A DNA stretch of 45,199 bases, from positions 1-45,199 of IMG/VR virus record IMGVR_UViG_3300021375_000054, one strand, 5' to 3'. The DNA comes from a virus. The notes below the pieces were generated by a model. It was not told the DNA's origin, ran no database searches, and saw only the letters and a program-made list of their open reading frames with translations. The first letter of the stretch is position 1; each line of letters begins with the position of its first letter. Below, in pieces: positions 7,339-40,386 of the stretch. The position numbers and the translations under genes were made by a program.

Positions 7339-10300
7339 TTATGACGTTATTTTTACCATAGGTCTAATCCTATAGGAGTAACCTAATCTTTTATTATATA
7401 TCAACCTAAAATTAAGGGGCTTTTGTTCGTGAGCTTTAAAACTAAAGTTTTGATCCGCAATAAAGCCACCGTCATCTAACGCATCTAGTGTAGATGCATT
7501 TTCCAACGTTGATGCTACACCCTTTACTCTCTTTGTAAATAGTTTAATTTTGCTAACACCAAACGCATTTACTAGGTTATCACTAATGTATAATCTAGCA
7601 TCATCCTGTAATGTTGTTTTATCTTCAGCAGAATCTATCGGCAATACATACTCAGTAATTGCTGCTAAAACTCCTTCTTGACTTAACCTTCTATTTATTG
7701 TAAAGTCAATATAAAAATCTATTACAACCCTCTCTTTATCTTCAAACATCACAATATCAGTTGTATTAGTATTATTCCTTAGAATATCATCTAATTCTTC
7801 TTCTGTTTGTACCACCTCAGGGATAAACTGTAGTAACTCATAGTTGTCTGCAGTTTTCATAATGGTAGACGCAAGATAAGACTTCTCTTCTTTTGTCTCA
7901 AATGTACCAGGCACTGATTCCGATAATCCGCCTGATAGGGATCTGGTATAATAGTTTTTATCCCATGAAGATCTAAATACATGTACATCTTTTTTATCAA
8001 TTGCAATTTCACCAATTAAAGGATAAAGTGGCAACTTATCTGTAGAAGTAGATAGTTTAGTAATACCAGCGGTATTAAATTCATTTACTTTTCTATAGAA
8101 ATGATTTTTTATTTTACCCCAATTCTCATCATGATTACCACCATCATAGATAAACCCTAAATTAAAAGCAACTCCACATCTATTATATTTTCTATAATAA
8201 TCTCTAGCTAATTCAATTTCAGAAGTATCTGATAAAGAGTGCTTATACATTCTCTCTTCTAGACTAATTTCATTTACGTTTGATGTATTCTGTAAAGTAT
8301 TAGTCTTCATGTGAGAGTAAATATCTGTGAAAGTTACAACAGGTGTTGTATCAATCGTATAGCCACCATTATGTCTAATTAAGAATGGATAGTAAGTAAA
8401 ACTATTAGTTAAATTATAGCCAATATTGCTTGTCGACAACTTAAAGGACTCAGGTTTATCTTCATCTTCCGTAGTTATGATAAACGACTCCTTAATAATC
8501 TCTACACCATCTTCAATTAGAATAATAAATTTATTCTGTTCAATAGTACCGTTAGTTTCAACCGTAGTGTATTTTACATTACCAGGATCTCTAAGTAACA
8601 TCTCGGCTACGTTTTGTATACCTAACGCATTTAAAATATTTTCGTATGCATTTATACCTCCACCAATATATGTATATTCACCGTTCCATTGTAAGTAATT
8701 AGGTAGGTTAGATAAATCTATTGTAGGAGTTAACTCTATTCCATTTGAATCAAAACCATCCCCAAAATCACCGTTCGTAATATTCTTAACAGGCTGTGTT
8801 AATTTAATACTATCTTGTCCTAACACATCGTCAATATTTAATCTTAGAACTACATCACCAAATGCAGTGTTTAATTTAACTATAATAGCTCCGAATTCAT
8901 CGTTATCATTCTTGTTAATTTGTTCTAAGAATTGAGGTACGCTATCATCAGCATGTGTTAAAGCTTTTAAAACTAAATAGTCATCTACTTGGTCGTTAGT
9001 TTGGTTTAAAGAGTTAAAATCTAATTGTCCATCTAATTTTATATCTGAGTATTTAAAGGTACTATTCTCATTATCCCAAACAAGAGAGTGTTTTAATTCG
9101 TATAATAGCTTTTTAGTAAGAGTTTGATCTGCCCATAAATCATCTAAGCTTAATGAGATAAAGAATACAACAAACTTAAATTTCTTATTTTGAATTACTT
9201 CATATTCAATACCATTAGACTCTTGTGCAGTTTTTACATTTAACAAGATACTAAATCTATAACCATTAAAATCAGAAGACTTAATAAAATCTACAGGAGT
9301 TTCTGAAGTAAATTCTTTTCTATTTTTAAAGCTAACTTTTAATCCTTTAAAGATAGTCTCAGCAAAAGACAAGTCATTACCACCATCTACTTTAGTATAT
9401 TTCTTTTGTCTATTAGTTTTTACAAAAGTTTTATAGTTGTTTTCACCCTTAGTCTCAAATCCATCTGTAATAAAGAATCTATCGAAATAATCAAAATTAA
9501 CATCTTTAAAAATAGAAGGAGTCATTTCAAAACCTTCCATAAAGTTTATGTAACTAAACGAATCATTTAATCTATACTCGGGGCTCTCATTAGTTCCTTG
9601 ATTTTCAATTAAATGTTTTGGTAAATTATTTACATAGAACCATTCATGAGTCATGCCTAATCTGTTTCTATTCTCAAATGATAAATCTGCTGAGAAGTTA
9701 GATCTTCCAAATGCTTCGTTAGCATTTAGATAATAAGGCTCTTCACGTACAGTCACTGTATCTTTTAGAACCCATTTGTTAATTGTAGGTACTACTCTAG
9801 ATTCGACTGCAAACTCTTTTAAGTAGTTCTCCTGCAGTCTATCATATTCACTTTGAATTATATTTTCATTAAAATCATCAGCCTGTTCTTCAACTAATAC
9901 ATCATTTAATCCTGTAAAATACCTAGAAGGTTGGATTGTGTAATCATTGTTTTCTAATTCACCAAATGGATATAAATCATTTTGTGCATTTTGCTCTGGC
10001 TCGTAATTAATTTCTTGTGCAGTTTCGTACTGTAATTCTTTTAAATCAGAGTTAGAAGTATTATAGAAATCAAAATTCATATCATGAATATCGTATGCTG
10101 AGAATAAACCTAGTCTAACTAGATTATCAGCAAATACATTAATTTCACCGTTATCAATAGAGTTATCTCTTTCTAAAATAACTTTCTTGTATTGTAGTGG
10201 TAATCTTTCAATATCATCAACTATATCAATAACCTTATTGTAAACTCCCGAAGATTTAGTCTCTATATAATCATTAATGTTAATATCTTCAATAGAATCT

Positions 10301-13300
10301 AAAGTAACTAACATAGATTTATTAGCAGCATTACCACCAGTAAAGAAAAATACATTACTATTAGAAAGTACATCTGTTGAATTTTCAGATATATCTAACC
10401 TTAGTAAATTATTAACATCTTCGTTCGCAGCATTAATAGAGATAAAGTTATTTGCGTTTTCATCAGGTATCGCAATACCAGCTTGCAGTAGTCTATATCC
10501 AATAACGTCTGTTTTAATATAGAAATGTTCAGCTTTATCGTATGTTAGTGCTGTAAATCCGTTATCAACAGAATTAATAGACTTAACGATAGCAGAAGTT
10601 ACTTCAGCAAGAGTACCTTGATTTGAGAAACTAGTCGAGTTAAAATGACCTGGAGATAAACCATCAGTTCCAAAGAACATATTATTCTTTAAGTCGTAAG
10701 GTACTTGTAACTCTTCTATTCTAGCAATAGTAGTATTACCAGGTTGTGGAGATATTGTTGGTTCAAATGGAGAAAGAGACGCTCTCTTTTCATAGAACAC
10801 AATGCTATTATCAGTTTCTTTTTCAAAGACTAGGTTATCACTAAGAACATTAAACGTATTATTTAGTGTTTGAACCAAATCAGCAATATCTGTTGTAGTT
10901 ACAATAAATAAACTTTCAGGCTGTCCGTTTACAGAAATACCAAAAGAAAAATATTGACCAGCAACATATCTCTTAAATTGAAGTCTATATAACTGCTCTT
11001 TAGATGGGAATATTGCGAACCTATCATTAACTGCAGGATTTTCTACAACATCTACTTTAATAAAATCACTACCTGGAGCAGCATTTTTAACTATCTCGAC
11101 TGATCTTCCAGTAGGAGCTAATTTAATTTCATCCTTAATCTTATTGCCACTATCCTTTACTCTAACTTCTAGATTAGAAGCGTTATAGAACTGAGTAGGA
11201 TCGATTTTATAGAAGTTATCAGATATATGTGCATAACCTAAAACAGGAACCTCTTTCAATAAATTGTGAGCTGGAATAGCTGAACTAGAGTTATTATTAA
11301 TATCAGAGTTTAGACTTTTAAACTTAATCACACTTTGATTAATAGACTCTAATGTCCCGTAACCAGAATCTATATCATCTACATATAAACCAAAGTATCT
11401 ATTAACCTCATAGTCACCTGCATTGTTATCGTTAAATAAGAACTCCATGTTAATTAAATTAGCACATGCTAACTTATTTCTTTCAAAGCCGCTTGTAATT
11501 AAATCATTCTCAGAAATAACAGGCTGATCTTTCTTAACAAAATCTTCATATAGGTATTCACCTTTACTAGTAAATCCACCACCAGATAAATCAATACCAT
11601 TAAAAGTACTTCTCTCGTTTTTATCAAAGTTAATAGTCAATGGAGTCTTAGGGAAAGACTCAGACTGTACGTGGTTTCTAATATAATTACCGATGTCACT
11701 ATCTCTAGTTAAATCAAAAGTCTCAATAATCTCACTATTATTTAAAATAGTAGACATATTGTTAAAGTTACTTACTGAATCAAAATCTAAAGCTGATGGG
11801 TCATCAACTCTAAAGATTAAAAACTTAGAAGGAATCTTTTTATCTAACCAGATAGGAGCCATTATTCTAAAGTCTTCATCATGTAGCTTAGAATAGTTAT
11901 AGACTGTCCCGTAATGGTAATCTTCTTCTATTTGTTTATCAAAAGTTTCTTGTACTGAAAAATCAGAGAAACTCTTCTTTGTTAAATAAATTTGATCTGC
12001 AGGAGTTTTAGCCTGCTTAAAAAACTTATGTAAATCATAAGACCATTGACCATCTTTATTTAAACTAAATTTCTTATATTCAACAGATGCTAACTCTTTA
12101 GTAGCGTCAATCGACTCAATAAACATTTTGCCGGTTGAGTTAACTACTAATTTAGCGTTTGTTGATAGTTTTGGATTTGTCCTTAACAGAGGTTTAGATA
12201 CATTATCTAATTCATAGTTTTTCTCTAAATCAAAATTAGGTATAGATCTATTAATAACCTCGCCGTCATCAAATATCTGTAAGGTATACGTACCTTGTGG
12301 CTCAAATCCTAAAATACATTGGTTACATGACGTATATCCATATTTAATTGCCGCGCCACTAGTTAATCCCAAGTCTACGCCTGATATTGTAACAGTTCTT
12401 ACGTTTATGTTAGCATATTCAGACTTACTTTTAATAATACTAATTGCATCATCAGCATTAATAGCGTGAATCTTATGTGCAATTGTTAAACAACTAATTA
12501 GATTATCACTGTTAATAATTGTAGGGTGTGTTCCTGAATTTAGGTTAAGCCACATATCTTCTAAATAAGAGCTAGAACCTGGTTCGCTAGTATGTAGACC
12601 ATCTACAATATACATTGGCCAATAAGGATCTCCCTCTTCAAATTTAGCATCACATGAGAAGAACGCGTAGAATATATTCTCTCTACTAGTAGCCTGTGTT
12701 GGTGCGCAAACCTGTACACCATCTTCAATTATACCTAAACACAGATCAGTATTTAAACTAGGTCTTTCATATCTTGGAGTACAATCAGCTAACCCAGTAT
12801 TTGCGTTGGCTAACTCTAACTCAGCAGATGTTATATTATCACCTTTCCATCTAAAGTTTCCTGTATATCCACTTGAGTTGTCATTTTCCCAAACAGCAAA
12901 TTGAGCAACTGGACTATCATTAAAATCACCTAAGAATATAGTACTTGGCCAGGTTTCGTCATAGTCTAAAGAACTAGCAGCAGCCTCTGACGTAAATGCT
13001 ACTATTTGATTTTGTAGCAAGTATGTTAACTTCTCTAAGTTTGAAGCAGTATCTAAATCTGTCCCAGAGAATTCTGCATTTTGATCTGCTCTAAACCAAA
13101 TAGTACTTTGAACAGATGTGCCTGCGCCAGTACATGCTGCATCAATAGAAACAGGATCGTTTTCATTAAACCAAACTTTAGTAGAATATGTTTGATAGAC
13201 TATTGGATCTTCACATGTAGTTAAAGCACTCCAGTTTCCACCTGTTAGTCTATAATAATTACTACCTAAACTTACATCTGAATAATAACCAGCAGCAACT

Positions 13301-15804: not shown

Positions 15805-15813
15805 CTATATATC
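15804..15813 (-). promoter_or_regulatory. Candidate late promoter element GATATATAGT
   Basis: The minus-strand GATATATA core lies 35 bases upstream of ATG 15768, in one of the few wider gaps (70 bp) of the late block. The same core occurs in the gaps before the amidoligase-like, S1-like and tube-initiator-like genes. It resembles the AT-rich T4 late promoter TATAAATA but is not identical. The core also occurs inside genes, so confidence is limited. Confidence 0.35.
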
Positions 15814-24826: not shown

Positions 24827-25093
24827 TTATCTAGTTCTATCGTCGTCTTTTTCTACTGTAAAGTTCTTGAAATTTCTTAAGTATCTCACTTGCGTTAACA
24901 CGTTAGTAATTATATCGTTAATAAATCCTAAGAATTCTCTCATAGTCTGGTTTCTTTGAATAAACCTAGACAATTGATTTTGAAGTAGACTATTATCATA
25001 GTCATACCTCGTATTCTTTAGATCATCTTTTCTATGCTTAGCTATTTTATATAGCCTTTTACGCTTGTATACTCTTAGGTCTTTAAATAACAT
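24827..25093 (-). CDS. Small basic protein between gp6 and gp7 (88 aa), unknown
   Basis: The N-terminal half is strongly basic (FKDLRVYKRKRLYKIAKHRK), followed by Arg/Asn/Gln-rich helices and an acidic-basic end (EKDDDRTR). Its ATG overlaps the gp6-like stop by one base (TAATG), and its own stop is one base from the gp7-like start. Expression is thus probably tied to the wedge genes. It is likely a small wedge-assembly or structural factor, but no family was recognised. Confidence 0.6.
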   Translation of the reverse strand: MLFKDLRVYKRKRLYKIAKHRKDDLKNTRYDYDNSLLQNQLSRFIQRNQTMREFLGFINDIITNVLTQVRYLRNFKNFTVEKDDDRTR

Positions 25094-26922
25094 TATTTCA
25101 AGGCTTTTCTATTTCCAGCCTGTACTCTAGTGTATATTGTTCTAGGTACTGGCGTTTCATCAAAGTTTACACTAAGTGCAGCTTCTGCGTTAATCGCAGC
25201 ATCATCAACAATTTCATCTCCATCTCTATCTAGCCATCCGCCCCTAAAGACAGCGACTTCTTCTTTTTCCATGATGATGTCACCCCACTCGTCTAAGCCT
25301 GCAATTGTATAGGGAATTTGTGTAGTAGCATCTACATCCACGGTCTTAACTTCCTCTATACGCTTAAAGAAAACATATTTTTGTTTGCCGTTACCAATTT
25401 CTTCTAGAACTACAGGTTCTTGTGGGACTACAGTTACAGTCTTAGACTCATAGTAACCCAGGCGTCTAGCTGTCTCTTCTGTTTCTGAGATGAATCTCAC
25501 ATTTACTGCATCAATACCATCAATCGTTTCTAAAATATAGACAATATCCGATTTAGGTAGTTTATCTCTTCTTGTAATGTTTAACATGTAATCACTAACT
25601 CTAGCTCTTACTTCGTTGTAAATTTCTTGTTTTGTATAACCTTCAAAATACCTAATGTTAATATCCATACTGTATTTTCTAATTTGAGGTTTTACAAAGA
25701 TAACTTCTGTTGTTACCATTTGTTGACCGCTATCCTGAATTACTTGTGACATTTTGTCATATTCATTTTGGTCAAAGAACATTTCGTTCAATGGAATCGA
25801 GAAGTAATCTTGATCTGCTAATAACTTTCTCTTAGCATCTGGAATAGCAAAAATGTAAATTACATTATCATCATCTAAATACTGATCTGATGTAGTATTG
25901 TAAGCATCCACATACGAGAATAATCCGTATCTTGATAGGAAATACTCGTAATTATCTGGAGTCGCTAAGACATAAGATTTAGAAGCCAGAGGCGCCATTA
26001 ACTTAGTGAACTCAACATTTTCAGCGTTCGCACCCATTTTAGGGGAAGAGGTTACATTTATTTCTAAATATTCATTTAAGTCAAAATTATTACCATTTGA
26101 ATCACTACCTTCAGACTGCCATTGGAATGTTAAATCTTGTCCGTCTGCTAAATTACCTTGAGCTCCTTTGTGTTTTACATATTCCACCATAATATCAGAT
26201 CCTCTTGTAGGTATTGCACCGAAGTTACCAGTACCAAAGTAAATATCTAAACCTCCAGCAACACCAGTCTTAATAATATAGCCTTTTTCTTCACTTAGCA
26301 AATCATACATTGAATCATGCTTAGTCCATTTTTGGCCGTTAACTGAAACACTAACTTTAGAATGATCTGTTAAAGATGCAATTTTTACATTATATGATTG
26401 CATAGGCTCTCCAGTTCCAGTAAATGTTTGTTGTTCAAATTTACCTTGAATGATAGCAACTTTAGTTTTAGTTTTATTAGATTTTTCTAATCTATATTTT
26501 TCTTGTGAAGATAATACAGTGTAGGTTAATCCATTTAATGGGCAAACTAGTTCAGATCTTGCGTCTACGTTTAAACCACTACCTGCAATCATACCTAGAT
26601 CTGCACCTACTTTCCATCTAAATTCAATTTCACCAGTTGCTGCAAACCCTCTTGTTGCATCATGTCCGGTTAATCTTGAAATACCATAAATAGACTCAGG
26701 TTGTTGAGCTGTATAAATGTTTTGCTCTACTAATGAATCTTCAATGTAGAACATAATTAATTCAGAGATCTCAGAAACTACATTTACAACTTGGGCAAAT
26801 GGAGATGCATCGGTAAACAACGTTCCGGCCCTCTTGTATACTCTAGAGATATATGTACGAGCATCTGACTGAATTTGATCTGCTCTTGTTCTTAATGTAC
26901 TTAAAAATTTTAGTTCCGCCAT
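25093..26922 (-). CDS. gp6-like baseplate wedge protein (baseplate J family)
   Basis: At 609 residues it is close to T4 gp6 (660). The N-terminus (LRTRADQIQSDARTYISRVY, then FYIEDSLVEQNIYTAQQ and IYGISRLTGHDATRGFAATG) and the following beta region (GSGLNVDARSELVCPLNGLTY) have the layout of baseplate J/gp6 proteins. These include an anchoring helical part and a series of beta domains with a C-terminal IDAVNVRFISE-type segment. Gp6 forms the dimer ring that joins wedges in the inner baseplate. The gp25-like gene precedes it by seven bases, the conserved gp25-gp6 pairing of contractile injection machines. Confidence 0.85.
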   Translation of the reverse strand: MAELKFLSTLRTRADQIQSDARTYISRVYKRAGTLFTDASPFAQVVNVVSEISELIMFYIEDSLVEQNIYTAQQPESIYGISRLTGHDATRGFAATGEIEFRWKVGADLGMIAGSGLNVDARSELVCPLNGLTYTVLSSQEKYRLEKSNKTKTKVAIIQGKFEQQTFTGTGEPMQSYNVKIASLTDHSKVSVSVNGQKWTKHDSMYDLLSEEKGYIIKTGVAGGLDIYFGTGNFGAIPTRGSDIMVEYVKHKGAQGNLADGQDLTFQWQSEGSDSNGNNFDLNEYLEINVTSSPKMGANAENVEFTKLMAPLASKSYVLATPDNYEYFLSRYGLFSYVDAYNTTSDQYLDDDNVIYIFAIPDAKRKLLADQDYFSIPLNEMFFDQNEYDKMSQVIQDSGQQMVTTEVIFVKPQIRKYSMDINIRYFEGYTKQEIYNEVRARVSDYMLNITRRDKLPKSDIVYILETIDGIDAVNVRFISETEETARRLGYYESKTVTVVPQEPVVLEEIGNGKQKYVFFKRIEEVKTVDVDATTQIPYTIAGLDEWGDIIMEKEEVAVFRGGWLDRDGDEIVDDAAINAEAALSVNFDETPVPRTIYTRVQAGNRKALK

Positions 26923-26929
26923 TAGTTAT

Positions 26930-27286
26930 TTATCTTAAATTTACTTGGATTTGATACTCGTTATTAATTGTAATATCTATATAACAAATATCCCTAACTT
27001 CACCCTTATAGAAACTAACCTCAACGTCAGTTGAGTAATCTCTAGATAGAGGGCAATAGTTATCCAGTTGGTTTACTATCTCGTTTTTGACTTGCCATTC
27101 GTTTTGATTTAAACTATAAACCAAATCTTCTAAGTTACAACCAAATTCAGGATTACCCAACACATCTTGCTTTCTTGTAAAAAGTACAGTTTCGATCTGA
27201 GCTATCAATTGATTTATTTCAGTAGAATTCTGAATAATACCAGTTTGATAGTTCGGGTCACCTATGTATTTAATGTAAAAATCCAT
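26930..27286 (-). CDS. gp25-like baseplate wedge protein
   Basis: The protein of 118 residues has the family core: INQLIAQIETVLFTRKQDVL, then NPEFGCNLEDLVYS, then a helix and closing strands with VRDICYIDITINN. The LFTxxGxxxxNPxFGxxLxxL pattern is the hallmark of the gp25/W-like family found in T4-like phages, P2-like phages and type VI secretion (TssE). Gp25 with gp6 forms the core bundle that controls sheath initiation. Its position directly before the gp6-like gene strengthens the call. The related lysozyme annotation sometimes given to this family does not imply enzymatic activity here. Confidence 0.9.
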   Translation of the reverse strand: MDFYIKYIGDPNYQTGIIQNSTEINQLIAQIETVLFTRKQDVLGNPEFGCNLEDLVYSLNQNEWQVKNEIVNQLDNYCPLSRDYSTDVEVSFYKGEVRDICYIDITINNEYQIQVNLR

Positions 27287-27306
27287 TTATATATGTATTC
27301 GGCTCA

Positions 27307-28149
27307 TTATGAGTGGAACATCCAGTCCACACCTTCATCACCCTTGATTTCTTCAATAATCGACTCTAATTCGGTGTCTCCCATGTCTTTTATTGCGTCA
27401 TAGTCAAATTCTACATTACCTGGCAATGCGAATTTAAAGATGCCAAGTTTGGCACCTAAGGACTGCTTAATCTTAGCAGAACAATATCTAAAGAAGATCT
27501 CGTCTTCATAGATAGCACAGTCTGGTAGAGTTTCATAAACTTGTAGGATAACATCTTGTTTAGGTGTATCTCCTAGTATTTTTAACTCACCAGTTAATCT
27601 CGAGTACTGAAATGAAATAGGATTTTCTAAAATCTGTCTAGACAAATCAGCCATCGATGCGTTTAATACATAATATTGTAATTCTTCAGCTGCTTCTGCT
27701 GGACCAGATCCATCATACATGCCTCTAAATAACATTTTTTCTAAAGCGAAATCACCACCACCTTGAAACCTCATATCAAGGCCTTGTCCAACTCCACCAA
27801 AACCACTTCCTAAATCATGAACTCCAAATACTGAAAATACAGCACCGGATCCATCTGTACTAGCGTTAGGTAGATTTAAAGATCTATGGTTTTTAAAATA
27901 TGTAGAATCAAATACCGAAGAAGGTATATGATAATAGTTTTCTCTTACAGAATCTTCATAGTTTTTATAGAACCATTTTTTAGCTCTTTTAACTATGTTC
28001 ATAATTTCTCTTTGAGGTAGGTTAACAGGAACCATACAAGCGCCTGTTAAATCATCTCCCAATTCTTGAAGAAATGCATTTAAACAGTTATCACCAAACG
28101 TTCTTTCGTTGTTTAGGTTGGTTTCGTTACCTGATCTAATTTCACTCAT
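27307..28149 (-). CDS. Neck/head-tail connector-like structural protein (280 aa), putative gp13/gp14 type
   Basis: The N-terminal helical segment (PVNLPQREIMNIVKRAKKWF) leads to a Gly-rich loop (GSGFGGVGQGLDMRFQGGGD). Helix and beta regions follow, then a C-terminal signature FRYCSAKIKQSLGAKLGIFKF with LPGNVEFDYDAIKDMGDTEL. This K-x-x-LG...LPG...G-x-x-EL arrangement resembles neck proteins of T4-like marine phages that cap the portal and join head to tail. The gene lies between the amidoligase-like and gp25-like genes, with a 20-bp gap before gp25. Alternative: another wedge or hub component. The call rests on recalled motif similarity. Confidence 0.4.
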   Translation of the reverse strand: MSEIRSGNETNLNNERTFGDNCLNAFLQELGDDLTGACMVPVNLPQREIMNIVKRAKKWFYKNYEDSVRENYYHIPSSVFDSTYFKNHRSLNLPNASTDGSGAVFSVFGVHDLGSGFGGVGQGLDMRFQGGGDFALEKMLFRGMYDGSGPAEAAEELQYYVLNASMADLSRQILENPISFQYSRLTGELKILGDTPKQDVILQVYETLPDCAIYEDEIFFRYCSAKIKQSLGAKLGIFKFALPGNVEFDYDAIKDMGDTELESIIEEIKGDEGVDWMFHS

Positions 28150-28150
28150 T

Positions 28151-29464
28151 TTATTTTTCTATTTTTGTGCTTACCACTATTTCAGTATTATCTTCAAACC
28201 TAGCATATTTACTAAGGCCTCCCTCTCTAAAGATGCCACCTTTCATTTTACCTTTGAAAATTCCGTCTCTACCAAACACATAACAGTTGGTAAGTTCGCA
28301 ACTTCCATGAACATAACTAGACTCTACTTTACAGTCAATCAATTCACAGCCTTTATATAATTGACATCTTAAAAGTTGTCCACCAGTTACAGTGCCTCCA
28401 AATATAGAGCTGTTCTCGATATTACCTGATAACTCGCAGTCTATAAATTCAAATCCATCTAAAAGATATGCAGCACCAAATTTACCGTCTTTAACTTGAA
28501 TCGAAGAATAGTCAGAATCATAATTAATAATTCCCTCTTCTAACGATCCATTTGACAAAAGATCTAGTACTTTTTTCTTAAATCGATCCCATTGAACCTC
28601 AATAACCTGCGGATCGTCTTGTAAATCCACTAATATATTTATCTTCGGCCAATGTTTATTTACTGCTTTATAGTCTTTTAGCATTTCTGTTAGAGGCTCG
28701 TTCTTTTTAAGAATCCTCTTAAGCTCTATTTTATTCTCTGGTGAGAATCTAGGATTATGGCAAGATTTCCATATAGACATGATAAATCCATCTGCTAAAT
28801 GTAGAATATCATCCGCTCTTTTTTCATAATTTTTACCACCTAAATATCTAAATTCTAGATAGTTCTTTTGAGCCTTCTCAAAGTTAATACCATAATACTT
28901 AGTATTAGCAAATGTAAAATTGTCTTTGTTAACCATATTCTCATTATAGTAGAAAGCCTCGTGTTTTGGCATAATCCATTTAATAGATTTTGCATAAGTA
29001 GAGTCTTCTCTATTTGGAAAATATTTATAGATTCTTGCCTCATCAAACTCAAGGATAAACTTCATCACATTCATGTGTTGAATCATATTTCTATCCTCTA
29101 AGTAATCTGGGTTAAAAGACATATTAAGATGAATTGACGCTCTATCTGACGTATAGCCATTTTCACGAATCCATCCTAACATTTTTATGATAACTAGCCT
29201 TGCGTTTCTATAAGGCATAGGACCTGTTACCAACTCAATAAGACCTGCACCACCTGACATATCAGGTTCCATCTTAAATACGTCTGCTGATGGTACAAAA
29301 TCTGAATGAGCCTTATCTTCTAGTTTGATCTTTCTACCTAAAAGTTTAGATACAGACTTTTGGGTCTCTTCTAATTTTAAGTTAGAATAGAATTCAAACT
29401 CGATGCCCATTTGACTGGCATTCAGAACTTCTGAGCGGTGGGCGTTACTTTTTAACTTTTGCAT
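28151..29464 (-). CDS. Amidoligase-like (COOH-NH2 ligase) enzyme with C-terminal beta-helix-like tail (437 aa)
   Basis: The N-terminal half has hallmarks of the putative amidoligase family (glutamine-synthetase-like COOH-NH2 ligases): MGIEFEFYS at about residues 19-27, an acidic segment (KMEPDMSGGAGLIELVTGP, about 64-82), and a later ASIHLNMSF with a conserved-type His (about 112). These enzymes are predicted to join a carboxylate to an amine using ATP. From about residue 350 the sequence turns into short repeats rich in Cys, Gly and Ser (FIDCELSG, SSIFGGTVTGG, ELIDCKVESSYVHGSCEL), resembling pentapeptide or right-handed beta-helix repeats. It sits among virion genes, one base before the neck-like gene. 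Substrate unknown; candidates are a virion protein, cell-wall peptide or host protein. The family call is from motifs only. Confidence 0.6.
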   Translation of the reverse strand: MQKLKSNAHRSEVLNASQMGIEFEFYSNLKLEETQKSVSKLLGRKIKLEDKAHSDFVPSADVFKMEPDMSGGAGLIELVTGPMPYRNARLVIIKMLGWIRENGYTSDRASIHLNMSFNPDYLEDRNMIQHMNVMKFILEFDEARIYKYFPNREDSTYAKSIKWIMPKHEAFYYNENMVNKDNFTFANTKYYGINFEKAQKNYLEFRYLGGKNYEKRADDILHLADGFIMSIWKSCHNPRFSPENKIELKRILKKNEPLTEMLKDYKAVNKHWPKINILVDLQDDPQVIEVQWDRFKKKVLDLLSNGSLEEGIINYDSDYSSIQVKDGKFGAAYLLDGFEFIDCELSGNIENSSIFGGTVTGGQLLRCQLYKGCELIDCKVESSYVHGSCELTNCYVFGRDGIFKGKMKGGIFREGGLSKYARFEDNTEIVVSTKIEK

Positions 29465-29490: not shown

Positions 29491-29500
29491 AATATATATC
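29491..29500 (-). promoter_or_regulatory. Candidate late promoter element GATATATATT
   Basis: A minus-strand GATATATA core lies in the 53-bp gap after the S1-like gene, 26 bases upstream of ATG 29464. The spacing is nearly the same as for the element before the S1-like gene (27 bases), which supports a shared role. Confidence 0.4.
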
Positions 29501-29517: not shown

Positions 29518-30804
29518 TTATTGGGGTAATTTTAAAAACACTTTCATGGAGTCCTCGTCAATTCTAGTAATTTGGACATCAATATCATCGCCTGATGTAT
29601 AATTACTTAAAGTATCTTTAGGCAACTCACTGATGTGTAATAAACCTGTTACACCCTCTTCTATATTTACAAAAACACCATATTCTTTTTTGGTTTTAAC
29701 TTTTGCAGTTACAATAGAAGGAATCTGGTATCTAGTATTAATGTTTATCCAAGGATTAACTGTAGTAACCTCTTTTTGTGTTAGTGTTATTTTAGTATTG
29801 CTAATAATATCTTTCACAAAGAAATTAATTGGATCGCCTGGTTTAATATCTCTAGCTTTAAATTTAGTCTGAGTCTCTTCATCTAATTCATTAGTGTGAA
29901 TCATACCTGTTAGACATTTGTCAAACTCTACGAATACTCCGTATTTAGCAGTTCCAGTTACTAGACCTGATTTTTGAATTCCTATATTATCTTTAAGATC
30001 TTTAATTGCACTAGGGATTAGAGCTTGTAGATATTTTCTATGTGATACTACAATTGTACCTCTATCCGGAGAGAAACTAACCGGTACTACATAAATCTCT
30101 TCGCCGATAATAGAACTAAAGTCAGATAATTTATTAATACCCGCAAGTGAACCAGGCATAAAGCAATCGATGCCTTGTACTTTCACAATATAACCACCGT
30201 TCTCAATCATGTTCTTAACAGTACCTATCCAAGCAGTATTACCCTCCTCGATAGAATCTCTAAGATCCATAAATGTTTTCTGCTTAACTCCACCTGTAAT
30301 TGAGCCAGTTAATGTACCTTTTGTTTCTGTGATTAAGACTGCAGTCTCTTCACCTGGTAACATCATTCTAACTTCTTCAGATTCTTTTGAAGCCTTTACA
30401 TATACAGACTCTCTATATCCAATATCAACAGTAATCCATTCTTGATCTACTGCATAGATTTCACCCGTATGAATTTCTCCAATACGTAGGCTTGGTATAA
30501 TTTCAGGGCTATTGTCACTTAAAATGTCATATAACTCTTGGGCATAGGGCTCTCTTGAATAGACCTTATCACCATTTTTAGTCTTAATATGTGGGTTGGG
30601 TTTTCTAGTTCTAGTAACACACGTAGCTTCGTATGCGTCCCATAAGAATTCGCCGCTCTCATCGTAGAACTGCGCATGGGGATCTTGAGTTTCCTCTTTT
30701 ACTTCTTTTACTTCTTCTGTGGGTTTTTGAATAGTTTCAACTAATTCAACTGTAGTGCCTTCTTGGGCTGCAGTAGTAATTCTGCGTCTTTTTTTGTCTG
30801 ACAT
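29518..30804 (-). CDS. Phage-encoded ribosomal protein S1 homologue, four S1 domains (428 aa)
   Basis: After a charged N-terminal region (residues 1-100) there are four S1/OB-fold domains at about 106-168, 187-256, 276-345 and 361-427. The third and fourth show the typical S1 signature (TAKYGVFVEFDKCLTGMIHT; KEYGVFVNIEEGVTGLLHIS); the second is more divergent (GGYIVKVQGIDCFMPGSL, then IIVSHR-type ending IVVSHRKYL). Bacterial S1 usually has six domains and binds mRNA on the 30S subunit to help initiation, especially where Shine-Dalgarno pairing is weak. A phage copy could bias initiation toward phage mRNAs or protect RNA. It is preceded by a candidate promoter and flanked by a metallopeptidase-like gene and the amidoligase-like gene. 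Confidence 0.85.
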   Translation of the reverse strand: MSDKKRRRITTAAQEGTTVELVETIQKPTEEVKEVKEETQDPHAQFYDESGEFLWDAYEATCVTRTRKPNPHIKTKNGDKVYSREPYAQELYDILSDNSPEIIPSLRIGEIHTGEIYAVDQEWITVDIGYRESVYVKASKESEEVRMMLPGEETAVLITETKGTLTGSITGGVKQKTFMDLRDSIEEGNTAWIGTVKNMIENGGYIVKVQGIDCFMPGSLAGINKLSDFSSIIGEEIYVVPVSFSPDRGTIVVSHRKYLQALIPSAIKDLKDNIGIQKSGLVTGTAKYGVFVEFDKCLTGMIHTNELDEETQTKFKARDIKPGDPINFFVKDIISNTKITLTQKEVTTVNPWININTRYQIPSIVTAKVKTKKEYGVFVNIEEGVTGLLHISELPKDTLSNYTSGDDIDVQITRIDEDSMKVFLKLPQ

Positions 30805-30831
30805 TTATTTTTATTTAAAAGGTATTAACAT

Positions 30832-30841
30832 ATTATATATC
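30832..30841 (-). promoter_or_regulatory. Candidate late promoter element GATATATAAT
   Basis: A minus-strand GATATATA core begins on the last base of the upstream stop codon, 27 bases before ATG 30804 of the S1-like gene. The leader between them is AT-rich, with no Shine-Dalgarno site. Confidence 0.4.
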
Positions 30842-31215
30842 TACTTAAGTATTCGCTTTATCCAAGTGTAATGTTTTCTACTACTTAGGTAACTTAAGTT
30901 ATCATCATGGTCATAGGCCTCCCTTTCAAAGGAGATATTATAGTAAGCCTCTTTTGCAGATTTATAGATTGGAATTTTAATAGCCCACTCTAACACATAC
31001 CATAGATAAAACGGTATCACCAACATTTCCTCTTGTTGTTTAATATGAATAGATTCATGGTTAATGATTCTAGCGGCTTTCTTTTTCCAATAAGACGTTG
31101 AATTATATTTCTCTCTTAAAACCACGAACGGCCAAAGAGTAATACCACCAACTCTCATAAACCAGCTGATGTTATTTAAAAATTTGTCGCTATACTTTAC
31201 AATAGGTGTTTTCAT
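30841..31215 (-). CDS. Small zincin-like HExxH protein of flavobacterial type (124 aa)
   Basis: The motif NHESIHIKQQEEM contains HExxH (H53, E54, H57), the zinc-binding and catalytic signature of zincins. A downstream ISFEREAYDHD (about 95-105) offers Glu residues as a third ligand. The hydrophobic helix after it (VIPFYLWYVLEWAIK) and the overall pattern closely resemble a short uncharacterised family frequent in Flavobacteriia (NHExIHxxQQ...FYLWYxxE...ISFEREAY). This is one of the better hints to the host and suggests host origin. No secretion signal is apparent. Substrate unknown. It lies 14 bases after another HExxH gene. Confidence 0.65.
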   Translation of the reverse strand: MKTPIVKYSDKFLNNISWFMRVGGITLWPFVVLREKYNSTSYWKKKAARIINHESIHIKQQEEMLVIPFYLWYVLEWAIKIPIYKSAKEAYYNISFEREAYDHDDNLSYLSSRKHYTWIKRILK

Positions 31216-31229
31216 ATACTTTATATATT

Positions 31230-31697
31230 TTATTTATTAATACTGGGCACAAATAATTCATCTGTAAGTTTTTCAGCATGTTGTTCCCATGGTCTATCTT
31301 CCCATGTTTGATTCCACCCAAATACTTGATTATTCCATAAGACTAGACCAAGCCCTTCTTTCAATAAATTATTTTCAAATTGATAAACATGTACAAGCTC
31401 ATGAAAAAAGGTTCTCTCTAATTTTTCTAAATTATATCTACTATTTAATTGAATTAGATAAACACCTGGCAATATTTCAGTTGTCAGCCCAACAATTCTA
31501 AAATCTAGGGGCGACATTTTAGTCTGTATAAATGGTACGCGAAATGGCGGATTTTGCATCAATGAATCTCTTATGAATCTTTGTGAACTCTCATTGCTAA
31601 CTACTTCACTAACTGTAGCTCTTTTAAAGATTAAGACTTCAGCACGCTGGGGTTTATTATCTTCTATAACTTGAGCTATAAAGAGTATAAAAACCAA
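31230..31697 (-). CDS. Putative exported zincin-like metallopeptidase (155 aa), start uncertain
   Basis: The core FFHELVHVYQFE carries HExxH (H99, E100, H103), and WEDRPWEQHAEKL (about 132-144) resembles the third-ligand ExxA element of small zincins. The first residues are hydrophobic (VFILFIAQVI), consistent with a signal or anchor. No ATG is available; TTG at 31697 is the start used here. The frame stays open upstream with a basic IFRK just before the hydrophobic run, so a rarer upstream start could give a fuller signal peptide. Beside the second HExxH gene it forms a metallopeptidase pair in the accessory cluster. Substrates could be host envelope or phage proteins; unknown. Confidence 0.55.
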   Translation of the reverse strand: MVFILFIAQVIEDNKPQRAEVLIFKRATVSEVVSNESSQRFIRDSLMQNPPFRVPFIQTKMSPLDFRIVGLTTEILPGVYLIQLNSRYNLEKLERTFFHELVHVYQFENNLLKEGLGLVLWNNQVFGWNQTWEDRPWEQHAEKLTDELFVPSINK

Positions 31698-31754
31698 CAG
31701 AACGAGAATTTTTCTAAAGATAATAATAAAGTTTAATTGATTAATATATGTATC

Positions 31755-31791
31755 ACAAAAAACTTTGTTATTTTAGGCAAAATAATTGCCT
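31755..31791. promoter_or_regulatory. Two adjacent inverted repeats in a divergent intergenic region
   Basis: ACAAA-AAAC-TTTGT (31755-31768) and AGGCAA-AATAA-TTGCCT (31775-31791) lie between the leftward metallopeptidase gene and the rightward gene at 31857. This is where a divergent control region would be expected. The second repeat is followed on the plus strand by seven T residues (31797-31803), so a hairpin terminator is the alternative. No consensus promoter was clear. Confidence 0.35.
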
Positions 31792-31856
31792 CTAGATTTT
31801 TTTATGTCAATTATTTTTCGTATATTAGTACTGTAATTAAACAACAACATAATACA

Positions 31857-32306
31857 ATGAATAATAAAAACGAAGCATGGGTAGTAGAGGGGCTCGAAGC
31901 TCAATTTAACTACAAAGAAATTACATGTAACGGAGTCGGTGGCTCAGGTTACCAAACTGTTCTAAAATACAAAGATCAAATTCAATCTATTTGCCAAGAG
32001 GTTCGAGACTTACTCGGAGATCGTCTTTTTGATAAGATGGTTGCTCAGGCACAAGAAAGAGATAAGGATGCTGATTTCCATACTGGACGTAGATATTCTA
32101 GTGTAGAAGACAATGCTTATAGATTGATTACTGGAATCGCTAAGCACGTTTGGTCTTATTTACCTAACGAACACCTAGCTGAGATGCACGTAGGAGCCGT
32201 TCTATCGATGTTAACAATTGACGAAAAGGTTTATATGGTACTTGATGCTCTTCGCGACTGTGCGTCTGCAGACCACTGGTATACTTACGAAAAAGACTGG
32301 GGTTAA
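31857..32306 (+). CDS. Unrecognised protein (149 aa), lone plus-strand gene in the late block
   Basis: ATG 31857 is chosen (MNNKNEAWVVEGLEAQ). The in-frame extension to 31737 is a hydrophobic, low-quality sequence that would run through the inverted repeats. The protein is globular and mostly helical, with several Trp and Tyr residues and acidic surfaces (QEVRDLLGDRLFDKM, YRLITGIAKHVWSYL, DALRDCASADHWYTY). It has no signal peptide, membrane segment or known catalytic motif. It opposes all surrounding genes and its stop is shared with the convergent 597-residue gene (TTAA at 32303-32306). Orientation suggests separate, perhaps early, expression. Function unknown. Confidence 0.7.
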   Translation: MNNKNEAWVVEGLEAQFNYKEITCNGVGGSGYQTVLKYKDQIQSICQEVRDLLGDRLFDKMVAQAQERDKDADFHTGRRYSSVEDNAYRLITGIAKHVWSYLPNEHLAEMHVGAVLSMLTIDEKVYMVLDALRDCASADHWYTYEKDWG

Positions 32307-34098: not shown

Positions 34099-34815
34099 TT
34101 ACTTATTCTTTTGTTGGTAGTTAATATGAGTACTAGATAATTTTGCTACAGTTGCAGGAGTTGGTGGCATCGGAGGACCAGAAGGTCCAACACCGGTTGG
34201 ATGTATATGTGCATTGTAATCATCTAATAGAGCCTGTAGCCAGTCTTGTAGAGATTGACCTCTTACTGCTGGTTCAGTTTCATCTGCTCCAGGTTCGCCA
34301 GTATTAGAGACAAATATATCTCCACAGTCCATAAAGATTTTAGCATCGGTTGAGATCTTAATAAAACCTTCTTCGTCGATTTGCATCATAGGTCTTTCTT
34401 TCTTACCTTCACCTCTTGTTATTACAAGACCATCTTCTGGTGAATGATAAATTCTTACATTACGTTCTGCATCGTAAACTAAAGATATAACATCATGCGG
34501 TGCATCGGATGCCTCTAGGATGTCTCCTTTTAGATCATCATTCTGATCTACTTGAAACCAGTATTCTGGGTGATAGATGTTACCATTATCAAATCTAATT
34601 GCAACAATGTCACCAACCCTTGGCACAGCATGTGCACCGACCTGATCTCTATTCATAGGCGTTGCCCATGGAATCTGGTCGTCTGGTAACTTATCAAATT
34701 TACCGAATACTTTTACGCGACACCTACCTTGTAAGAGTGGATCTTCATTAATAACCACTTCACCAAGCCAGTGAGTCTCACGTAAGTTGTCTCTGTAAAG
34801 TTCATTATTATTCAT
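34099..34815 (-). CDS. gp5/gpV-like baseplate central spike protein (238 aa)
   Basis: Residues about 14-90 form the OB-fold domain of gp5/VgrG-type spikes: HWLGEVVINEDPLLQGRCRV, WATPMNRDQVGAHAVPRVGD and IVAIRFDNGNIYHPEYWF, the last matching the P-x-x-GD-x-V-x-V-x-F-x-G pattern. A stretch of short beta repeats follows (residues about 105-170, MMQIDEEGFIKISTDAKIF), as in the triple-helical spike. The end is a Pro/Gly-rich HIHPTGVGPSGPPMPPTP tip region. No lysozyme domain lies between OB fold and spike, unlike T4 gp5. The spike punctures the outer membrane at contraction. It overlaps the previous gene by eight bases. Confidence 0.85.
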   Translation of the reverse strand: MNNNELYRDNLRETHWLGEVVINEDPLLQGRCRVKVFGKFDKLPDDQIPWATPMNRDQVGAHAVPRVGDIVAIRFDNGNIYHPEYWFQVDQNDDLKGDILEASDAPHDVISLVYDAERNVRIYHSPEDGLVITRGEGKKERPMMQIDEEGFIKISTDAKIFMDCGDIFVSNTGEPGADETEPAVRGQSLQDWLQALLDDYNAHIHPTGVGPSGPPMPPTPATVAKLSSTHINYQQKNK

Positions 34816-40376: not shown

Positions 40377-40386
40377 TATATATATC
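40377..40386 (-). promoter_or_regulatory. Candidate late promoter element GATATATATA
   Basis: A minus-strand GATATATA core in the 55-bp gap ahead of the tube-initiator-like gene, 21 bases from ATG 40355. It would start transcription of the hub gene group. Confidence 0.35.

What the first reader, a model, noticed from the sequence alone, without database searches (positions are those of the whole stretch)
29518..30804. Phage-encoded S1 homologue with four S1 domains
Viruses encoding ribosomal proteins have been reported, but a four-domain S1-like protein in a phage whose own genes mostly lack Shine-Dalgarno sites is notable. S1 mediates initiation on weak leaders, so this protein may redirect host ribosomes to phage late mRNAs or replace host S1 on the 30S subunit. 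A charged 100-residue N-terminal extension may provide the docking site.
Basis: partly seen in the sequence, partly recalled or inferred. Interest (0 to 1): 0.75.

Follow-up and report, generated by a model that had tools for sequence, protein, structure and literature searches.

The report
Phage-made copy of ribosome protein S1
An ocean phage carries its own shortened version of the bacterial ribosome protein that captures messenger RNA, kept among its virus-building genes in its many relatives, which suggests that it steers the host's ribosomes late in infection; phage S1 genes were already known, but this family looks older and more widespread than the first report of it implied.

Summary
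An intact 428-aa gene on the minus strand encodes four S1 domains. They correspond to OB1-OB2 plus two RNA-binding domains of bacterial bS1, with an intact RNA-binding face and the Lys/Arg that anchors bS1 to uS2. The predicted fold matches 30S-docked bS1 best. All 13 sampled phage S1s form one clade (100/100) outside the sampled bacterial bS1s: an old, phage-specific family. The gene sits inside the tail/baseplate cluster. In 131 of 131 marine and intermediate loci the same gene follows it, and in 38 of 40 giant-phage-like loci it follows other late genes. Upstream lies a conserved promoter-like box shared with two late genes. The window lacks them (0 of 26), but so do five relatives with no S1 gene (5 of 163 genes; T4 26 of 40). 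Missing sites look like a Bacteroidota host trait. Phage rpS1 and the hijacking idea are in print (PMC7162821). Best reading: a late-made bS1 that docks on host 30S subunits; ribosome binding is untested.

The parts
29518..30804 (-). phage bS1-type protein gene (428 aa, four S1/OB domains)
30826..30841 (-). conserved upstream box GATATATAATATGTTA, putative late promoter of the S1 gene; the box starts 37 nt before the start codon
   Evidence: only exact match in the window; 15-base core in 73 of the 204 loci scanned
30628..30648 (-). residues 53-59 FLWDAYE, motif shared with Bacteroidota bS1 N-termini
   Evidence: 88 of 89 marine phage S1s, 3 of 3 Bacteroidota-type bS1s, 0 of 11 other rows (one of them a wrong fragment)
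30511..30543 (-). residues 88-98, helix in front of OB1, position of the uS2-docking helix of E. coli bS1
   Evidence: secondary structure; model 91-260 on docked bS1 3-174
30301..30489 (-). S1 domain 1 = OB1 (ribosome-docking domain; residues 106-168); Arg131 at the position of E. coli Lys43
30043..30231 (-). S1 domain 2 = OB2 (GGY ... FMPGS signature; residues 192-254)
29779..29973 (-). S1 domain 3 (RNA-binding type; Tyr288, Phe291, His303; residues 278-342)
29530..29718 (-). S1 domain 4 (RNA-binding type; Tyr375, Phe378, His390; residues 363-425)
28151..29464 (-). invariant 3' neighbour (amidoligase-like PF12224 plus a further C-terminal part), with its own GATATATA box at 29493-29500
   Evidence: (PF12224 E 3.4e-6)
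25093..28149 (-). late neighbours, three genes: gp13-like neck (27307-28149), gp25-like (26930-27286), gp6/baseplate J-like wedge (25093-26922)
34099..34815 (-). upstream late neighbour: baseplate injector OB (gp5/VgrG-like) protein, directly 5' of S1 in the intermediate group

Best explanation
The gene encodes a phage-specific, four-domain bS1. It is made with the late (virion) genes, docks through OB1 and the helix in front of it on uS2 of the host 30S subunit, and uses OB2-OB4 to capture phage mRNAs, keeping or biasing translation towards structural proteins when output must be highest. It replaces or tops up host bS1 instead of poisoning the ribosome. Shown here: family, domain identity, kept RNA-binding and most anchor residues, predicted fold, common origin of the sampled phage S1s, fixed place among late genes, conserved promoter-like box. 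Inferred: late timing, uS2 docking, any preference for phage mRNA, Bacteroidota host.
For: Domain 1 scores best on OB1 and domain 2 on OB2 in six of the seven bacterial S1s printed (Lactobacillus differs for domain 1). At Lys43 of E. coli (in the uS2 zinc pocket, PMC10123108 passages) 44 of 45 filled rows have K or R; OB2 G204 and F215 are invariant and Y205 is kept in 46 of 47; domain 3 F291 47 of 47 and H303 42 of 47; domain 4 H390 43 of 47. Best folds are bS1 on the 30S (9gut_B, Foldseek E 5.3e-25; 9guq_B Z 14.2 over 163 residues). E. coli bS1 without domains 5-6 is viable, and domains 1-3 suffice for 30S binding (PMC3858243 passages), so four domains are enough. Late context. Purifying selection. 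Precedent: phage bS21 enters ribosomes (PMC6375957 passages) and is co-expressed with structural genes in Bacteroidetes phages (PMC9723584 passages).
Against: No ribosome binding, expression or host was observed. The OB2 lysine Lys117 is N, P, H, S or E in 44 of 47 rows. Docking aromatics do not align one for one: Tyr92 is Y in 24 of 38 filled rows, and the Phe5/Phe9 spacing differs by one residue. The rpsA equivalog cut-offs are missed by far (TIGR00717 138.8 of 577 bits; NF004952 157.1 of 524). Five relatives do without S1, so it is not needed for SD-less translation. Leader composition does not clearly differ between S1-bearing and S1-lacking relatives, so no leader code for a phage S1 is visible.
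Confidence: 0.6

Rival explanations
1. It is a virion-associated protein: packaged with the genome or part of the tail, perhaps injected to act on ribosomes at once.
For: It lies inside the tail/baseplate cluster in marine and intermediate loci (131 of 131 with the same 3' neighbour) and beside other late genes in 38 of 40 giant-phage-like loci. Encapsidation has been suggested for phage bS21 (PMC9723584, passages). OB folds occur in phage baseplates (34099-34815 is one).
Against: RNA-binding residues and OB1/OB2 bS1 identity are kept, which a purely structural role would not need; the cultivated tailed relatives lack it. No virion proteomics is held here.
Confidence: 0.15
2. It is a dominant-negative S1: it displaces host bS1 and shuts off host translation.
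For: Overproduced OB1 alone displaces native S1 and stops bulk translation in E. coli (PMC3296737, passages). The phage protein keeps OB1 but has fewer domains than the six OB domains I count in Bacteroidota bS1.
Against: It keeps two RNA-binding domains under purifying selection, and four-domain E. coli S1 supports growth (PMC3858243, passages). Shut-off would be wanted early, not among late genes.
Confidence: 0.12
3. It works off the ribosome, as an RNA chaperone or nuclease cofactor protecting or remodelling phage late mRNA.
For: Host S1 has such roles in phage T4 and Q-beta biology (PMC13157829 passages); the authors of PMC7162821 leave 'on or off the ribosome' open (passages).
Against: The ribosome-docking half (helix, OB1, OB2) is kept; an off-ribosome chaperone would not need it.
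Confidence: 0.1

Closest known systems
rpS1-like proteins of huge phages (Al-Shayeb et al. 2020, PMC7162821)
   Same: Same protein family: the best phage hits are the 462-735 kb records; that these are that paper's genomes is inferred from their sizes. Same hypothesis: redirecting initiation, with SD-poor genomes (passages).
   Different: Here the family is a widespread core gene with fixed place and promoter-like box, and its link with SD loss disappears against S1-less relatives.
Bacterial bS1 (rpsA), Bacteroidota type
   Same: OB1-OB2 plus RNA-binding OB domains; N-terminal F-x-W motif shared with 3 of 3 Bacteroidota-type bS1s.
   Different: Four domains, not six; phage S1s form a separate clade on a long branch; equivalog cut-offs missed.
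Phage bS21 of Bacteroidetes phages (Chen et al. 2022, PMC9723584)
   Same: A ribosomal initiation protein placed among virion genes in Bacteroidetes phages; late expression shown there (passages).
   Different: Another protein; in that study other ribosomal proteins were lacking. Here bS21 occurs in 5 of the 15 records searched, all five S1-bearing.
PhiMa05 bS1 (PMC13157829; MW495066)
   Same: Phage-encoded bS1.
   Different: Lies beside ispH, bL21 and bL27 genes; does not group with this family in the best tree, though a joint clade is not rejected (p-AU 0.258).

Membership tests
bS1 (ribosomal protein S1) family | OB1 and OB2 of bS1 type, not just generic S1 domains | tested here: met
   Phage domain-1 and domain-2 profiles score highest on OB1 and OB2 in six of the seven bacterial S1s printed (L. 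fermentum prefers another domain for domain 1); fold match to 30S-docked bS1
bS1 (ribosomal protein S1) family | RNA-binding aromatic residues and His in the downstream S1 domains | tested here: met
   F291 47 of 47, H303 42 of 47, Y/F375 46 of 47, F378 31 of 47, H390 43 of 47; which residues bind RNA is recalled from S1-domain literature
bS1 (ribosomal protein S1) family | uS2 anchors: N-terminal aromatic helix, Lys43 | tested here: inconclusive
   Helix 88-98 predicted; K/R at the Lys43 position in 44 of 45; aromatic positions shifted by one, Tyr92 kept in 24 of 38
bS1 (ribosomal protein S1) family | scores above the curated rpsA model cut-offs | tested here: inconclusive
   Missed (138.8 of 577 and 157.1 of 524 bits); but TIGR00717 exceeds its cut-off in only 2 of 14 control genomes too, four of which are archaea
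bS1 (ribosomal protein S1) family | binds the 30S subunit | not testable with these tools
   needs biochemistry
rpS1 of huge phages | common origin with the S1s of the 462-735 kb phages and Lak | tested here: met
   13 of 13 phage rows one clade, 100/100; best phage hits
rpS1 of huge phages | genes rarely carry SD sequences | tested here: met
   0 of 26 in the window; 12 of 331 in the other S1-bearing loci used
rpS1 of huge phages | large genome | tested here: inconclusive
   The window record is a 45 kb fragment; the longest near relative is a 212 kb contig

The most novel reading that the evidence does not exclude
An ancient, phage-only lineage of ribosomal protein S1, in a widespread group of large phages of marine Bacteroidota, forms phage-specialised ribosomes late in infection (or is delivered in the virion) in hosts whose ribosomes ignore Shine-Dalgarno sequences and may rely on S1 to find A-rich leaders. 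The phage would thus own the host's main mRNA-selection protein.
Probability: 0.25. Interest if true: 0.8.

Novelty: new member of a known kind. Interest (0 to 1): 0.5.

Why it matters
It turns a scattered curiosity (S1 in 'a few' huge phages) into a core late gene of a widespread marine phage lineage with sequenced relatives that lack it. That gives a natural comparison: same phage type, same SD-less leaders, with and without S1. It also separates two things previously linked by correlation, phage S1 and missing Shine-Dalgarno sites. If the protein works on ribosomes, it would help test whether bS1 is the mRNA selector in Bacteroidota, an open question (PMC6847099, passages).

Tried and rejected
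Rejected: (1) S1 as the cause or cure of missing SD sites: S1-less relatives are equally SD-poor. (2) Recent capture from a host: phage S1s form one clade outside the sampled bacterial S1s; a joint clade with Bacteroidota is not the best tree but is not rejected (p-AU 0.149), so the donor stays open. Bacterial sampling was thin (12 rows, most from plasmid-labelled records, one of them the phage PhiMa05). (3) A T4-type late promoter TATAAATA: 1 match in the window against 9.4 expected, none within 100 nt upstream of a gene. (4) PHROGs: no family at E 0.001 for any of 11 phage S1s; the one weak hit (E 0.0076) was ignored. (5) tRNAs in the window: none. (6) A bacterial source by genome contigs: six loci, only L065 with clear companion phage genes.

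Limits: gene starts in the SD count are automatic (first ATG, at least 120 aa). Related loci are not independent. In the SD count 11 marine loci were used out of the 56; in the box count 21 marine loci; 29 sources, the window included. The box is a motif, not a mapped promoter; its count alone is not above shuffles (7 against 5.0): position and strand make the case. Host assignment rests on relatives; no CRISPR spacer was searched. The place of the Lak S1 is unsure (long branch). Statements that a point is not in print rest, in an open-access library only.

Full report
WHAT IS THERE. The coordinates 29518-30804 hold one intact gene on the minus strand, 428 aa. Pfam finds four S1 stretches (E 1.2e-24), and the best solved relatives are bacterial bS1 proteins (6bu8_Z, E 2.6e-42), aligned from OB1 to OB4. 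AlphaFold2 on 47 aligned sequences from the window and fetched loci gives mean pLDDT 79.7: residues 1-40 disordered, a helix at 88-98, and four OB barrels; pTM is only 0.53, so the arrangement between domains is not reliable. Foldseek and VIA-align put bS1 docked on the 30S first (9gut_B, E 5.3e-25; 9guq_B, Z 14.2 over 163 residues with rmsd 4.9).

WHICH S1 DOMAINS. Profiles of the single phage domains were run against bacterial S1s. Domain 1 picks OB1 and domain 2 picks OB2 in Parabacteroides, Prevotella, 9zcd_A, E. coli, Tsukamurella and Neochlamydia; in L. fermentum domain 1 prefers another domain. Domain 4 picks OB4 or OB5; domain 3 is ambiguous. So this is the ribosome-binding half of bS1 plus two RNA-binding domains. 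In E. coli such a set works: deletion of domains 5-6 is viable and domains 1-3 suffice for 30S binding (PMC3858243, passages).

RESIDUES. In 47 aligned phage S1s, the place of E. coli Lys43 (which enters the uS2 zinc pocket; PMC10123108, passages) is K or R in 44 of 45 filled rows. OB2 keeps G204 (47 of 47), Y205 (46, once F; E. coli Phe120) and F215 (47; Phe130), but loses Lys117 (K in 3 of 47). The RNA-binding face of domain 3 (Y/F288 47, F291 47, H303 42) and domain 4 (Y/F375 46, F378 31, H390 43) is kept.

N-TERMINUS. The region is not one new docking device. Residues 53-59 (FLWDAYE) fit a motif F-x-W-x(1,2)-[YFL]-[EQ] found in 88 of 89 marine phage S1s, 3 of 39 intermediate ones, 1 of 6 of the named huge-phage rows (Lak) and 0 of 40 giant-phage-like ones; and in 3 of 3 Bacteroidota-type bS1s against 0 of 11 other rows, one of which was a wrong fragment. 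Shuffled marine N-termini give it in 0.2%. This points to Bacteroidota bS1 as a relative, though most non-marine phage S1s lack it.

ORIGIN. A tree of 25 sequences puts all 13 phage S1s on one side of a branch with 100/100 support and a long stem. Sister groups are unresolved: joining them to Bacteroidota costs 11.9 log units (p-AU 0.149), to PhiMa05 7.5 (p-AU 0.258). Neither is rejected. The family is old within phages.

SPREAD AND PLACE. In 38 of 40 giant-phage-like loci S1 follows g08, g09 or g04 homologues (29, 1 and 8); for 2 no 5' family was seen, and none of the 40 has a window-gene homologue 3' of S1. The 462 kb phage LR756500 keeps 18 window gene families in order, S1 among them. The neighbours are gp5/VgrG-like, gp13-like, gp25-like and gp6-like virion genes. 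S1 evolves under purifying selection like these (median pN/pS 0.207 in 10 loci against 0.15-0.24 for g12 and g14-g17, 0.33 for g22).

A PROMOTER-LIKE BOX. Directly upstream of S1 lies GATATATAATATGTTA, the only exact copy in the window; its 15-base core occurs once each in 73 of the 204 loci scanned (two of the 73 are loci of the window itself). The shorter GATATATA occurs 7 times in the window, all on the coding strand, 6 within 100 nt of a start; in 21 marine loci 93 times sense and 0 antisense, 68 within 100 nt, mostly 27-39 nt; the control TATAAATA gives 22 sense, 35 antisense, 4 within 100 nt. Across 29 sources it marks mainly three genes: S1, the amidoligase-like gene and g27 (29, 29 and 31 of 129 boxes; 33 boxes were unassigned). 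The count by itself is not above shuffles. In the intermediate loci a similar AT-rich box often precedes S1. I read it as a late promoter; this is not shown.

SHINE-DALGARNO. The window has an SD core before 0 of 26 genes. The other S1-bearing loci used have 12 of 331 (marine 7 of 130; L058 0 of 37; L059 0 of 19; L060 4 of 44; L061 0 of 35; L062 0 of 35; Lak 1 of 31). T4 has 26 of 40. The key control is five relatives found by the wedge (gp6-like) and helicase searches: PTm1, pT24, PAU, MA9V-1 and MaF61. Their complete records hold no S1 by family profile or by Pfam S1, while all ten S1-bearing records ring; yet they have SD cores in 1 of 33, 1 of 40, 1 of 28, 0 of 29 and 2 of 33 genes. Missing SD sites thus go with the phage lineage and its hosts (Tenacibaculum, Chryseobacterium, Flavobacterium; PAU is recorded on Sphingomonas), not with S1. 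Bacteroidia ribosomes do not recognise SD sequences (PMC9976891, abstract); A at -3 and A-rich leaders matter, and bS1 has been suggested to bind them (PMC6847099, passages). This offers another reading of the correlation between rpS1 and missing SD sites in huge phages (PMC7162821, passages): host phylum as the common cause. That is my inference; I did not reanalyse all their genomes.

MECHANISM. The best-supported chain is: late transcription from its own box (inferred), docking on uS2 by OB1 and the preceding helix (inferred from homology and fold), mRNA capture by OB2-OB4 (inferred from kept residues), more or more selective phage translation late in infection (hypothesis). The precedent is phage bS21, which enters ribosomes (PMC6375957, passages) and is expressed with structural genes in Bacteroidetes phages (PMC9723584, passages). 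The rivals are a virion protein, a dominant-negative S1 and an off-ribosome chaperone.

NOVELTY. Phage S1 proteins and the idea of hijacking initiation were published (PMC7162821; also PMC13157829 for PhiMa05). What my searches did not find in print (open-access library only) is this marine clade's fixed place of S1 among tail genes, its upstream box, and the S1-less, equally SD-poor relatives. I rate it a new member of a known kind with medium interest.

Noticed in passing
window 29493-29500, 30834-30841, 40379-40386, 15806-15813, 7395-7402, 1757-1764 (all minus strand): GATATATA boxes on the coding strand only, just upstream of gene starts: a candidate late-promoter motif for this phage clade.
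   Followed up: partly
window 28151-29464 (-): Amidoligase-like (PF12224) protein with its own box, next to S1 in 131 of 131 marine and intermediate loci; function in a phage tail cluster unclear.
   Followed up: partly
window 30841-31215 and 31230-31697 (-): Two small proteins with an HExxH-like motif (HESIH, HELVH), upstream of S1, detected in only part of the relatives.
   Followed up: no
window 31857-32306 (+): A lone gene on the opposite strand inside the late cluster (about 149 aa; no Pfam or PHROG match for the longer ORF 31737-32306), kept in opposite orientation in many marine loci.
   Followed up: partly
L054 about 10001-11295 (record G001) and L185: The S1 gene appears broken into several frames in G001 and gives two S1 pieces in L185; sequencing error or real decay not decided.
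   Followed up: no
L111 (phage PAU record): PAU, recorded on Sphingomonas paucimobilis, has SD-less genes (1 of 28) and Bacteroidota-phage relatives; its recorded host may deserve a check.
   Followed up: no
L065 (contig ONCO01000010.1, filed as an Erysipelotrichaceae bacterium): Carries a phage-type S1 next to gp6-like and gp25-like genes on the other strand: probably a phage contig binned into a bacterial genome.
   Followed up: partly
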